From positions 1,116,001 through 1,180,000 of the forward strand of contig NZ_CP042453.1 of NCBI RefSeq assembly GCF_007993735.1: a DNA stretch of 64,000 bases. Direction: 5' to 3'. The stretch is from Arenimonas daejeonensis. GTDB lineage: Bacteria; Pseudomonadota; Gammaproteobacteria; Xanthomonadales; Xanthomonadaceae. This document shows positions 29,161 to 37,444 of the stretch, in pieces; position 1 is the first letter of the stretch, and every line of letters begins with the position of its first letter. Both the position numbers and the translations under genes were made by a program. The notes under the pieces were generated by a model, which saw nothing but the letters and a program-made list of their open reading frames with translations, had not been told where the DNA came from and searched no databases.

Positions 29161-32100
29161 ATGGCTACTGCCACGCCTGTTAATGGATTGACCCGCGCCA
29201 TCATCCGCCGAGGGGTGTGGCTGCCAGCAGTGGCGTTCCTGGTCGTGGCCGTCTTGTCTGCTGCAGGCTGGTGGGCGATCGCGCGCCATGACGACCGGCT
29301 GGCCGAAGCCGTGCTCGAGCAGCGTGCGAACACCGTGCAGGCTGCACTGCGCGCAAGCATCGTCGCCCGCGCCGAGAGCATCCGGCGCATGGCCCAGCGC
29401 CTGGCGCAGGCGCCGGACGAGGCCGCGCTCGAACGCCAGTTCGACATCGACGCCAGGATCTACCTGCAGCACTACCCGAGCCTGCGTTCGCTGACCTGGG
29501 CCGGGCCGGACCGGGTCGTGCGTCATGTGCTGGCGCAGCCGGGCGCACCGGTCCTGCCGGCGGGCGCGACGCTGGAGTTCGACCCTGATCCGCTGGCCGT
29601 CGGCAACGCGGAACCTGCCGCCTCCCGGTCGCGTCTCCTGGAGGGCAGCAACGGCGAACTGCTGGTCGCGCGCAACGATGGCGAATCCGGGCACCAGGCG
29701 GCCTATCTTGTCGCCGCGCTGGACTACGGACGCTTGTTCCCCGACGTGCTCGAGGGTATCGAGCCCGGCCTGCCGCTGCGGATCAGCCAGGGCGGGCGCG
29801 TCATCCACGCCCGCGGCGTGCCTGAAGGGGTTGCCGCGGCACTGGACCGGCAGGTGGCCAACCAGGGCCAGGAAGCCCGGATCGAACTCTGGCACGCCTC
29901 GGGCGAGGCCCTGACCAGCCGGTTCGGCGACATCCTGTTCGTGGCGGGCCTGCTGGTCGGCGCATTGCTGGCGTTGGCGCTGCACCTGTGGACGCGCTCG
30001 CGCGAGCGCGCCGAACAGGCCGAACGCGCCGGTGAGGCGCTGACCATGCAGATCGCCGAGAACGAAGCGGCCCAGGAGGCACGCCGGGCCGTCGAGCGTG
30101 AACTCAGTTCGGTGTTCGAGAGCATCAGCGATGCCTTCTACACGCTCGACGACGACTGGCGCTTCGTCCTGGTCAACCCGCGCGCCGAGCAGTTGATGCG
30201 TACACCGCGCCAGGAGATGGTGGGAAAACGCGTCTGGGACGTGTTCCCGGCCGCCCTTGGCACCGAGATCGAGACCAGCTTCCGGCGTGCCGCCGCCGAG
30301 AAAATCACGGTCGAGTTCGACGTCTATTTCCTGCCGCTGGCGAGCTGGTTCAACGCACGGGTGTTTCCGCACCCGAATGGCGTGGCGGTGTATTTCCAGG
30401 ACGTCAGTGCACGCAAACGCGCCGAGCTGGGCATGCTCAAGGCCCAGGCCACGTCGGAGCGCGCGCAGCGCCTGGCCCAGCTGGGCAGCTGGGAATACGA
30501 CCTGAGCACCGGCGAGCTGCATTGGTCAGAAGAGGTGCATCGCATTTTCGGCATTGCCGAGGCGCGGCTGGCGCGTGGCCTGCCGGCGCTGCTGGAACGC
30601 GTGCACTTCGACGACCGCGTGGCGCTGCAACAGGCGCAGCGCCGCCTGCACAACGGCGAGGGCGATATCGACATCGAATACCGCGTGCTGCGGCCCGACG
30701 GCGAGACCCGGATCGTGCGCGAGCTCGGCACCCCTGGTGCGCGACGAGCAGGGCCAGCCGGCGGTGGCGGCCGGCTCGCTGCAGGACATCACCGACCGTC
30801 GCCGCAACGAGGATGCGCTGCGTGAACTGACTACGCGGCTGGAACAGTCGCTCGTGATGCAGCGCCTGGTGATGGACAACTCGCTGGACGTGATCTGCGT
30901 GATCGACGCCAACGGCCGTTTCGCCCAGGTCAGCGCCGCCAGCGAGCGGGTCTGGGGTTATCCGGCCAAGGACCTGGTAGGCCGCGCTTTCCTCGACCTG
31001 GTGCATCCCGACGATCGCGGCCGGACCCTGCGCGCAAACGCCGATATCCTGTCCGGCCGCCCGACCTTCGACTTCCGCAACCGCTACATGCACAAGGACG
31101 GCCACGCCGTGACCATGCAATGGTCCTCGGTGTGGTCGGCGCGCGAGCGCCTGGTGTTCTCGGTGGCGCGTGACATCAGCCTGCTCGAGAGCCAGTCGCA
31201 GGCCCTGCTGCATGCCAACGACAGCCTGCAGCGTGCGCAGGACATCGCCCGCATGGGCGCCTGGGAACTCGAGATCGCCACTGGCCGGCTGAGCTGGTCG
31301 GAGCAGGTCTATCGCATCTTCCGCGTCAAGCCGGACGAGTTCGCCGGCACCTTCGAGGCAATGGCCCTGCGTGTGCACCCGGACGACCTGCCGATGCTGC
31401 AGGCGGCCCAGGCGCATGCATTGCGCGGCGAGGCGGAACTTGACGTCCAGCACCGCATCTTGCTTCCCGACGGTGGCATCGGCCACGTGCATGAACGTGC
31501 GCGCCTGCTTCGCAACGACCAGGGAGCGCCATGGCTGCTGTCTGGAAGCGTGCAGGACATCACCGAAGCAAAACGCCAGGAGGCGCTGCTGCGCGACAGC
31601 GAACAGCGCATGCGCACCACGGTGTACAGCGCTTTCGACTGCATCGTCACGATGGATGCCGAAGGCGACATCCGGAAGTTCAACCCGGCGGCCGAACGCA
31701 CCTTCGGATATCGCCGGGACCAGGTGATCGGCCGGAAGCTGGCCGACGTGCTGTTGCCGCCGGAGCACCGCGCCGCGCACACCCAGGGCCTGAGCCGCCA
31801 TGTCGCGACCGGGAAGGCGAAGGTGTTGGGCCGGCGGCTCGAGATGACGGCGATGCGCACGGACGGCAGCCAGTTCCCGGTCGAACTCACCATCACGGTG
31901 CTGGGCGAAACGACGCCGCCGGTGTACACGGGCTTCCTGCGCGATATCACCGAGGCCAAACGCATCGAGCGCATGGAGGCCGGGCAGCGCGAAATCCTGG
32001 CCGGCATCGCCGCGCGCCGGCCGCTGCGCGAAAGCCTGGAGGCGATCACGCGGCTCTACGAACAGCAGTATCCGGCCGCGCTGTGCAGCGTGCTGCTGCT

Positions 32101-35017: not shown

Positions 35018-37444
35018 GCGACGCGCCGCTGCGCGTGCTGGTCGTCGACGACGACGAAGAGGATTTCCTGATCCTGCGCGACCTGTTGGCCGACTACGCC
35101 CAGGCCCGTTTCCACCTGGACTGGGTCGGCACGCTGCGCGAGGGCATCGCGGCGCTGCGGGCCAACGACCACGACGTTTTCCTGGTGGACTACCAACTGG
35201 GCCCCGACAACGGCATGGAGCTGGTGCGCCTGGCCGTCGCCGAGGGCAGCGCACACCGGCCGGTGATCATGCTGACCGGCCAGGGCAATCCCGACGTGGA
35301 CCGCGAGGCGCTGGCGGCCGGCGCGTCCGACTACCTGGTCAAGGGCGCGATAGACGCCGAGAAGCTGGCGCGGTCCCTGCGTTATGCCGCCGAGCGCGCC
35401 CGCCAGATCGCCGAGATCGAGGACGGAAAGCGCCGCTACCAGCTGCTGTTCGCCCTGAACCCGTACCCCACCTGGGTCTACGACTGCGAGACGATGCGCT
35501 TCGTGGCGGTGAACGATGCCACCGTGGCCGGTTATGGCTATACCCGAGACGAACTGCTGGCGATGACGGTGCTCGACATCCGCGCCCCGGAGGAGGCCGA
35601 GCGCCTGAAGGCGTTCCTGGCCGGTTGGGGTGACAACATCGGCAACGCCGGAATCTGGCAGCACCTGCGCAAGGACGGCAGCCGGGTGTGGGTGGACATC
35701 ACCACCCACAACCTGGTGCTGGACGGCCGCGACTGCCGGATGGTGATCGCGCACGACATCACGACGGAACGGGTCACCCGCGAGCGGCTGCAGCTGCTGG
35801 AGCGGGCGGTGGAGTCGAGCATCAACGGCGTGGTGATCGCCGATGCCAACGCCCCGGACCTGCCGGTCATCTACGTCAACCCGGCGTTCGAAAGCATGAC
35901 CGGCTATTCCGCGTCCGAAATCCTGGGCCGGAACTGCCGCTTCCTGCAGGGCACGTTGCGCGACCAGCCCGAACTGGAAGTGCTGCGCGCCGCGCTGCGA
36001 ACCCAGAGCGACTGCAATGTGATCCTGAGCAACCAGCGCAAGGACGGCAGCCTGTTCTGGAACCACCTGTTCCTTTCGCCGGTGCGCGACGACCAGGGCC
36101 GGGTGACGCATTTCGTCGGCGTGCAGAACGACCTGACCGAACGCCGCCAGGTCGAGGCCGAGCTGGCCTTCACCGCCAACCACGATGCAGTCACCGGCCT
36201 GCCGCGTTTCCCGATCCTTGAAACGGCCCTGGCCAGCCTGCTGGAGAAGGAAGGCTCGGTGGTGTCGCTGTTCTACATCGACCTCGACCACTTCCACTCG
36301 ATCAACGAATCCATGGGCCATGTGATCGGCGACGAAGCGCTGCGCCTGGTGGCCGAACGCCTGTCGGCCGTGATGGGCGGGCCCGCTTTCCCTGGCGCGT
36401 TTCGCCGGCGACGAATTCGTGGCGATCGCGGCCGGCGCCGACCGGGCGCGGGCGGCCGAACTGGCGCGCGACATCCGCACCGCCCTGGCGCAGCCGATCG
36501 AGGGCGACGGTTACCGCCTGTATCTCACCGCCAGCATCGGCATCAGCCGTTCGCCCGAACACGGCGAAAGCGGCATGGAACTGCTGCGCCGCGCCGAGGC
36601 CGCCATGACCCGGGCCAAGCGCCAGGGTCGCGACGAGGCCTGCGAATTCTCGGCCGCGCAGATGCAGGAACTGGAAGACCGGCTGGTGCTGGGTGCGCGC
36701 CTGCGCGACGCCATCGCCCGCAACGAGCTGAGCCTGAACTACCAGCCGCAGCTGCGCGCCGCCGACCGCCGCATCACCGGTTTCGAGGCCCCGGTGCGCT
36801 GGAACAGCCCGGACCTGGGCCCGGTGCCGCCGGGACGTTTCATCCCGATCGCCGAAGCCCTGGGCCTGATGCCCGAAGTCGGCAGCTGGGTGATGAACGA
36901 AGCCTGCCGGCAGCTTCGCGCCTGGCTGGACCAGGGTCGTGACGGCTTCACGGTCGCGGTGAACGTCTCGGCCCAGCAACTGCAGCGGCCGGATTTCGTG
37001 CAGCAGGTGCGGGAGACGCTGCAGCGGCACGACGTGCCCGCGCCGATGCTTGAGATCGAACTGACCGAAAGCTCGCTGATGGAAAACGTCGAACGGGTGC
37101 AGGGCCGCCTGGCCGAACTCAAGGCCATCGGCGTTTCGCTGTCGCTGGACGACTTCGGTACCGGCTATTCCAGCCTGTCCTACCTCAAGCAGTTTTCGCT
37201 GGACAAGCTCAAGATCGACCGCAGCTTCGTCAAGGACCTGCCCGACAGCGCGGATGACTCCGCCATTGCCCGCACCATCATCGCCATGGGCCACCAGTTG
37301 CGCATGGTGGTGGCGGCCGAAGGCGTGGAAACCGAGGCGCAGGCGGCATTCCTGCGCGAGATCGGCGCCGACGAGCTGCAGGGTTACCACTTCGGCCGGC
37401 CGGTGGCGTCGGCGGAGATCGAGGCGCTGTTCCCGCGCGACTGA
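35014..37444 (+). CDS. REC-PAS-LOV-GGDEF-EAL cyclic-di-GMP protein, frameshifted
   Basis: Residues 6-125 form a receiver domain (VVDDDEED, LVDYQLGPDNG, LVKGA). A PAS domain spans about 140-255. A LOV domain (about 263-380) has the flavin motif GRNCRFLQG with photoactive Cys308 and FWNHLFLSPVRD ... FVGVQNDLTERR. A GGDEF domain follows, with signature AGDEF, then an EAL domain with EAPVRW, NVSAQQLQ, LTESSL, DDFGTGYSSL, KIDRSFV, EGVET and QGYHFGRP. An extra C in CCC 36390-36392 breaks the frame just before AGDEF. It should make or break cyclic-di-GMP under phosphorylation and blue-light control. It starts within the regulator stop after GGAGGGAA. Confidence 0.9.

What the first reader, a model, noticed from the sequence alone, without database searches (positions are those of the whole stretch)
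29161..37444. Three-gene sensory unit ending in a LOV-GGDEF-EAL protein
A kinase with a CHASE-like domain, seven PAS and two GAF domains, a single-domain Rcp1-like regulator, and a REC-PAS-LOV-GGDEF-EAL protein are joined by abutting or overlapping stop/start codons. The LOV domain has the flavin-cysteine motif NCRFLQG (Cys308). This predicts that phosphorylation signals and blue light meet on cyclic-di-GMP turnover. Each class of protein is known; I do not recall this exact three-gene arrangement being described.
Basis: partly seen in the sequence, partly recalled or inferred. Interest (0 to 1): 0.7.

Follow-up and report, generated by a model that had tools for sequence, protein, structure and literature searches.

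The report
Conserved light-and-phosphate c-di-GMP signalling operon
A bacterium of the Arenimonas group carries three linked genes, kept together in related bacteria, that probably combine a kinase signal and blue light to set a common second messenger; the parts are all familiar, and in this particular assembly two of the three genes are broken by what are probably sequencing errors.

Summary
Frame changes run through the whole window at a similar density (21 in 49.7 kb against A. terrae), so sequencing or assembly error is likelier than decay. The genus is Arenimonas. Of 26 same-genus relatives, 11 carry the three-gene unit with open frames and LOV, and one (A. fontis) without LOV. In a scan of public genomes, 22 of the best 80 loci have kinase, Rcp1-like receiver and a REC...LOV(Cys)...EAL protein in that order; 11 of the 22 are the same Arenimonas genomes, the rest include Tahibacter, Dyella and Rhodanobacter. 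So it is a conserved module. Most likely it is a kinase- and blue-light-gated c-di-GMP enzyme, with hydrolysis the surer output. All parts are known; close precedents are Anabaena CdgK-CdgS and Synechococcus SL2. New here: the conservation, a LOV loss that keeps the 21-residue linker, and repeated natural replacement of the LOV glutamine. No biochemistry was possible.

The parts
28989..29064 (+). tRNA-Thr immediately upstream of the unit
   Evidence: ARAGORN
29161..30730 (+). kinase, first frame (end approximate): periplasmic dCache/CHASE-like sensor between two long helices, then PAS 1 and most of PAS 2
   Evidence: ORF and codon periodicity, Pfam, predicted fold and Foldseek
30731..32577 (+). 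kinase, second frame (ends approximate): PAS 3-5, GAF 1, start of PAS 6
   Evidence: frame change shown by GC3 profile and by comparison with A. terrae; Pfam
32578..34530 (+). kinase, third frame (start approximate): rest of PAS 6, GAF 2, PAS 7, HisKA (SHDLQEPLR), HATPase_c
34523..35017 (+). single-domain Rcp1-like receiver (start GTG 34523 or, more likely, ATG 34550)
   Evidence: Pfam; solved relatives
35014..36395 (+). third gene, first frame (end approximate): REC, PAS, LOV (Cys308) and first half of GGDEF
   Evidence: Pfam, solved LOV relatives, orthologs
35773..36180 (+). LOV domain with NCRFLQG and flavin-contact residues in register
36396..37444 (+). third gene, second frame (start approximate): AGDEF half of GGDEF, and EAL domain (motif reads EAP here)
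   Evidence: Pfam, ortholog alignment

Best explanation
A conserved signalling operon. A membrane kinase with a periplasmic dCache/CHASE-like sensor and many PAS/GAF domains phosphorylates a diffusible Rcp1-like receiver and the receiver domain of a REC-PAS-LOV-GGDEF-EAL enzyme. Blue light forms a cysteinyl-flavin adduct at Cys308 in the LOV domain, which sits directly in front of GGDEF on a 21-residue linker. Both inputs bias the dimer and so c-di-GMP turnover. The likelier dominant output is hydrolysis by EAL, with GGDEF weak or regulatory. The three breaks in the window are most likely assembly errors. Shown: domains, residues, gene order, conservation, open frames in relatives. Inferred: flavin binding, photocycle, phosphotransfer partners, direction of the light effect, and that the living strain's genes are intact.
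For: Unit with open frames in 11 same-genus relatives with LOV and one without (in two of the 12 the contig ends inside the kinase frame). 22 of 80 loci of the named scan pass a fixed criterion, 11 of them the same Arenimonas genomes. In a chosen 26-row alignment the LOV cysteine is in 25 of 25 LOV-bearing rows, the third protein's receiver Asp/Thr/Lys and the EAL catalytic residues in 26 of 26. LOV: best solved relative E 1.2e-36, LadC 8c05 E 6.1e-30. Linker of 21 residues in 25 of 26 rows by script; the 26th (L068) missed the pattern by its last letter and has the same ungapped length in the alignment. In two Rhodanobacter rows with GNEF the EAL residues remain, favouring a phosphodiesterase output. 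21 frame changes over 40 matched genes and 49.7 kb of the window against A. terrae, 17 of them in 13 other genes. GGDEF domains split into adjacent partial matches at five other places in the genome, and completeness 86.37 on one contig.
Against: No biochemical evidence. The window's own copies of two genes are broken and its EAL motif reads EAP, so decay in this strain is not excluded; some frame changes lie in poorly alike genes and could be real differences. The ligand of the PAS before LOV is unknown. In two Rhodanobacter rows the LOV motif itself is decayed (SCRQLG), and A. fontis lacks LOV, so light is not essential to the unit. 14 of 26 same-genus relatives show no strong ortholog of the third protein (some of these genomes are incomplete).
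Confidence: 0.6

Rival explanations
1. The LOV domain works as a flavin redox or oxygen sensor, or as a passive spacer, rather than as a light sensor.
For: The active-site glutamine is replaced in 9 of 25 LOV-bearing rows and the motif is decayed in two. A LOV-like PAS in P. aeruginosa RmcA lacks the cysteine and is tied to redox as well as light (passages of PMC8846402).
Against: The adduct cysteine is kept in 25 of 25 LOV-bearing rows, and a glutamine-free LOV-GGDEF construct from Mesorhizobium loti still answers light (passages of PMC9098866).
Confidence: 0.2
2. The window's strain carries a decayed unit: the three frame changes and EAP are real mutations.
For: Two of three genes broken; EAP seen only in the window among 26 rows.
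Against: 13 other matched genes of the window are broken too; GGDEF domains elsewhere in the genome are split; codon periodicity stays strong in each frame.
Confidence: 0.12
3. The main output is c-di-GMP synthesis by GGDEF, with EAL regulatory.
For: xGDEF motif in 24 of 26 rows, AGDEF the commonest. Short-linker LOV-GGDEF proteins with 21-residue linkers are light-activated cyclases, about 15-fold (passages of PMC10396304).
Against: EAL residues complete in every row, GNEF in two. LOV-GGDEF pieces of LOV-GGDEF-EAL proteins with this linker showed no light-regulated synthesis (same passages), and SL2 is described as a light-dependent phosphodiesterase (passages of PMC8846402).
Confidence: 0.2

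Closest known systems
Anabaena CdgK-CdgS (PMC9927289, passages read)
   Same: Kinase with CHASE, five PAS and a GAF, cotranscribed with a receiver-bearing c-di-GMP enzyme; one PAS of CdgK is said to bind FMN.
   Different: There the flavin PAS is in the kinase, the kinase is hybrid with REC and Hpt, the partner is a GGDEF protein with no EAL named in the passages, and no Rcp1-like receiver is mentioned.
Synechococcus elongatus SL2, LOV-GGDEF-EAL (passages of PMC8846402)
   Same: Canonical LOV with GGDEF and EAL; blue-light-dependent phosphodiesterase.
   Different: No kinase or receiver partner in the passages; here REC and PAS precede LOV.
LadC LOV-GGDEF cyclases (passages of PMC10396304 and PMC12805367; structure 8c05)
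   Same: LOV joined to GGDEF by a coiled linker; 21 residues as in their short-linker group.
   Different: LOV-GGDEF only: no REC, extra PAS or EAL.
Mesorhizobium loti glutamine-deficient LOV-GGDEF-EAL (passages of PMC9098866)
   Same: LOV-GGDEF-EAL with the glutamine replaced, as in 9 of 25 LOV-bearing rows here.
   Different: The window keeps the glutamine; no kinase/receiver unit in the passages.
Cph1/Rcp1-type kinase and single-domain receiver (structures 1i3c, 1jlk, 1k68)
   Same: A receiver of this kind; the kinase's SHDLQEPLR box is of the type I recall beside it.
   Different: No PHY domain in the window's genome; the kinase has dCache/CHASE-like, PAS and GAF domains.
Xanthomonas RavS-RavR (PMC6707612, search listing only)
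   Same: Histidine kinase paired with a response regulator in c-di-GMP control, in a related bacterium.
   Different: Domain details recalled, not read; I recall no LOV.

Membership tests
LOV photoreceptor domain | PAS_9 match with NCRFLQ cysteine | tested here: met
   Pfam PAS_9 5.9e-33; solved LOV relatives from 1.2e-36; Cys308
LOV photoreceptor domain | flavin-contact residues at Cys+1, +4, +17, +32, +42, +63 (positions recalled from AsLOV2) | tested here: met
   R, Q, R, N, N, Q present in the window
LOV photoreceptor domain | flavin binding and light-induced adduct | not testable with these tools
   needs protein
EAL phosphodiesterase | catalytic residues E, N, E, DD, K, E, Q (recalled) | tested here: met
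   present in 26 of 26 rows; the window motif reads EAP, keeping the E; Pfam EAL 3.9e-73
GGDEF cyclase | (A/G/S)GDEF loop and metal Asp | tested here: met
   AGDEF and DLD in the window, across a frame change; the Lys usual in DxDxFK (recalled) is His in 24 of 26 rows, Lys in one (L078), Asn in one (L044g), so activity is uncertain
Rcp1-like single-domain response regulator | solved relatives Rcp1/RcpA/RcpB near the top, no output domain | tested here: met
   5te9 1.1e-39, then 1i3c 5e-33; 1k68 6.6e-28; only Response_reg in Pfam
HisKA histidine kinase | HisKA and HATPase_c | tested here: met
phosphotransfer pair | kinase phosphorylates these receivers | not testable with these tools
   needs protein
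intact operon in the window | each gene one open reading frame | tested here: not met
   three frame changes
CHASE domain | Pfam PF03924 above cut-off | tested here: not met
   no hit in the window; 22.1 bits against cut-off 25 in A. caeni, none in three other kinases scanned; fold matches dCache/CHASE-type structures at TM-scores 0.34-0.45

The most novel reading that the evidence does not exclude
The unit is a two-input gate in which the LOV domain is a removable cassette: A. fontis lost LOV while keeping the 21-residue linker to GGDEF, Rhodanobacter fulvus and strain Root480 show a decaying LOV, and the active-site glutamine was exchanged about four times inside one genus. The family would then be a natural series showing how a light input is added to, tuned in and removed from a kinase-controlled c-di-GMP enzyme.
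Probability: 0.35. Interest if true: 0.6.

Novelty: new variant of a known kind. Interest (0 to 1): 0.42.

Why it matters
If the mechanism holds, one enzyme reports both a kinase's phosphate and blue light into c-di-GMP, and close relatives differ by small natural changes: LOV present or absent, glutamine or leucine. That makes two questions directly testable with wild-type proteins: what a LOV domain adds to a receiver-controlled enzyme, and how much the active-site glutamine matters in a natural setting.

Tried and rejected
A programmed frameshift was considered and rejected: relatives have open frames and other genes of the window are broken too. Loss of the GGDEF motif in four Rhodanobacter was a first impression from a narrow pattern; the alignment shows VGDEF in two and GNEF in two. 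A first linker pattern found nothing because its gap was one residue too long; the corrected one is. Other weak LOV-like matches in the window's genome: two of three were translated (at 126551 and 2164407) and lack the cysteine; the third, at 2164020, was not looked at. No BLUF and no PHY domain in the window's genome. Rows dropped before the counts: L079 (frame cut), the cyanobacterial L080 and L081, and the LOV-less L103, L117 and L122, all of which were in the alignment. The tree warns that the Ectothiorhodospiraceae bin and G049 are long branches that meet; A. fontis is also a long row and the fork that places it has support 86/96, under the tool's star. Outputs were cut in the middle. Papers: the searches listed no description that I could recognise of the kinase, Rcp1-like, REC-PAS-LOV-GGDEF-EAL arrangement; they cover open-licence PMC papers only, and I judged by listings and by passages of six papers, so this is weak evidence of absence.
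Full report
What is in the window. Pfam on the six open pieces gives PAS, GAF, HisKA and HATPase_c for the kinase, a receiver for the small gene, and REC, PAS, PAS_9, GGDEF and EAL for the third gene. By position I count seven PAS and two GAF domains in the kinase. A tRNA-Thr ends at 29064, just upstream. The kinase stops at 34530; the receiver runs to 35017; the third gene's ATG is at 35014. The LOV cysteine is residue 308.

Neither the kinase nor the third gene is one open frame. The kinase goes from frame 1 to frame 2 near 30730 and back near 32577; the third gene goes from frame 1 to frame 2 near 36395, just before AGDEF. 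The third-position GC profile follows the switches. Comparison with A. terrae puts each at or beside a one-base length difference in a short homopolymer, less sharply at the second place. As a control I took 55 gene-like ORFs of the collinear A. terrae contig; 40 matched the window under my thresholds, with 21 frame changes over 49.7 kb. Three of the 21 are the ones above, one more lies at the uncertain start of the kinase, and 17 fall in 13 other genes. Some of these genes are poorly alike, and A. terrae's own sequence may hold errors, so 21 is a rough figure. GGDEF domains at five other places of this single-contig genome also come as adjacent halves, and its completeness is given as 86.37. 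Sequencing or assembly error is the simplest reading. The EAL motif reads EAP in the window and EAL in the other 25 rows; with this error load I cannot say whether that is real.

Relatives. A search of 60 relatives with the front of the third protein gave matches at E 1e-100 or better in 12 of 26 same-genus genomes and in none of the other 34; the other 14 same-genus genomes, some of them incomplete, gave only weaker ones. In 11 the third protein is REC-PAS-LOV-GGDEF-EAL of 809-810 residues from the overlapping start, in A. fontis it is 685. The kinase is one open frame in all 12, though two contigs end inside it. A genome of another family of the order (G058) has the same three genes at lower identity. 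The named scan identifies the genus as Arenimonas: A. terrae, A. malthae, A. donghaensis, A. metalli, A. caeni, A. fontis and metagenome bins. That scan found 225 loci and kept the best 80. By a fixed criterion 22 of 80 hold kinase, receiver, LOV with cysteine and EAL in order; 11 of these are the same Arenimonas genomes, the others Tahibacter, Dyella (two) and a Dyella-like bin, Rhodanobacter (six) and an Ectothiorhodospiraceae bin. 4 of 80 pass without the LOV cysteine (A. fontis, two Thermoanaerobaculia, one Pyrinomonadaceae). 54 of 80 do not pass; in 45 of them a kinase core lies in the same open frame as the receiver (counted by eye), many being Bacteroidota by title. One of the 54 (L079) has all but EAL, its frame being cut. 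A start codon at the 4-nt overlap between receiver and third gene is present in the window and in 13 of 13 relatives extracted.

Residues. The LOV cysteine is kept in 25 of 25 LOV-bearing rows. The glutamine at Cys+63 is kept in 16 of 25, including the window; it is Leu in six and Ser, Met and Ile in one each. Two Rhodanobacter rows have a decayed LOV motif (SCRQLG) and GNEF. Other departures: His for Asn at Cys+42 in Tahibacter; His for the Gln of NCRFLQ in three Dyella-type rows and Asp in one Rhodanobacter. Mean pairwise identity among 12 Arenimonas rows is REC 0.83, EAL 0.82, GGDEF 0.73, LOV 0.71, PAS 0.63.

Evolution. A tree without the LOV columns puts A. fontis inside Arenimonas, at a fork with support 86/96, so LOV loss there is simpler than gain elsewhere, but its branch is long. 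Its PAS-to-GGDEF linker is 21 residues, as is the LOV-to-GGDEF linker of 24 other rows by script and of L068 by eye. Counting by hand on that tree, Gln/Leu changed about four times inside Arenimonas; A. terrae (Leu) is the sister of the window (Gln). In relatives the codons are CAG against CTG or CTC.

The kinase's sensor. An AlphaFold2 model of its first 300 residues from 18 sequences has mean pLDDT 80.2 and pTM 0.65. Foldseek's 12 solved matches at E 0.001 or better are chains of KinD, DctB, a sensor kinase domain, Xanthomonas PcrK and CqsR, E 8e-6 to 8e-4, TM-scores 0.34-0.45. This supports a dCache/CHASE-like periplasmic sensor without proving it; Pfam CHASE is hit only below cut-off, in one of four kinases scanned. 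In A. caeni and A. metalli, the two that I translated, about 370 mostly hydrophobic residues precede it, and open frames of similar extra length appear in other relatives; the window and A. terrae lack this.

Mechanism. Family knowledge (recalled) says receivers of this type are phosphorylated by such kinases and LOV domains form an adduct in blue light. The LOV domain is directly before GGDEF with the linker length of short-linker LadC proteins, whose cyclase is raised about 15-fold by light; LOV-GGDEF pieces taken from LOV-GGDEF-EAL proteins showed no light-regulated synthesis (passages of PMC10396304). SL2 is a light-dependent phosphodiesterase (passages of PMC8846402). With EAL residues complete in every row I favour hydrolysis as main output. 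The Rcp1-like receiver may be a second output or a phosphate sink; nothing here decides. In the window's genome this is the one LOV-like match seen with the cysteine, and no BLUF or PHY was found (one weak match not inspected).

Known or new. LOV proteins with GGDEF or GGDEF-EAL were about 18% of 1390 bacterial LOV proteins in a 2014 survey (passages of PMC4844311). Anabaena CdgK-CdgS is a close functional precedent (passages of PMC9927289). I found no description of this exact unit in the searches listed under Tried and rejected. I rate it a new variant of a known kind, conserved and testable, of moderate interest.

Noticed in passing
window 8800-61900: Frame changes against A. terrae in 15 of 40 matched genes, the unit's two included; ORF-based annotation of this assembly will be unreliable.
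   Followed up: partly
L042 and L069 (both A. fontis): Same three-gene unit with the LOV domain missing and the 21-residue linker kept.
   Followed up: yes
L076, L077 (Rhodanobacter sp. Root480, R. fulvus): LOV motif decayed to SCRQLG and GGDEF to GNEF, EAL residues complete.
   Followed up: partly
L035:4028-5230, L038:4281-5450: About 370 mostly hydrophobic residues in front of the kinase's periplasmic sensor, absent in the window and A. terrae; two relatives translated, similar open-frame lengths in others.
   Followed up: partly
L043, L044, L068: Third protein (or its relative in L044) carries an extra receiver-like stretch at its C-terminus (by eye).
   Followed up: no
window genome and seven same-genus genomes: No BLUF domain in the window's genome, A. 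terrae or A. fontis, but one in each of the five other genomes searched; no PHY domain in any of the eight.
   Followed up: no
   Followed up: no
window 36791-36793: EAL motif reads EAP; the other 25 rows read EAL.
   Followed up: partly
window 37931-38851: Open frame downstream that looks like an arginase/agmatinase family protein (by recalled motif; ORF).
   Followed up: no
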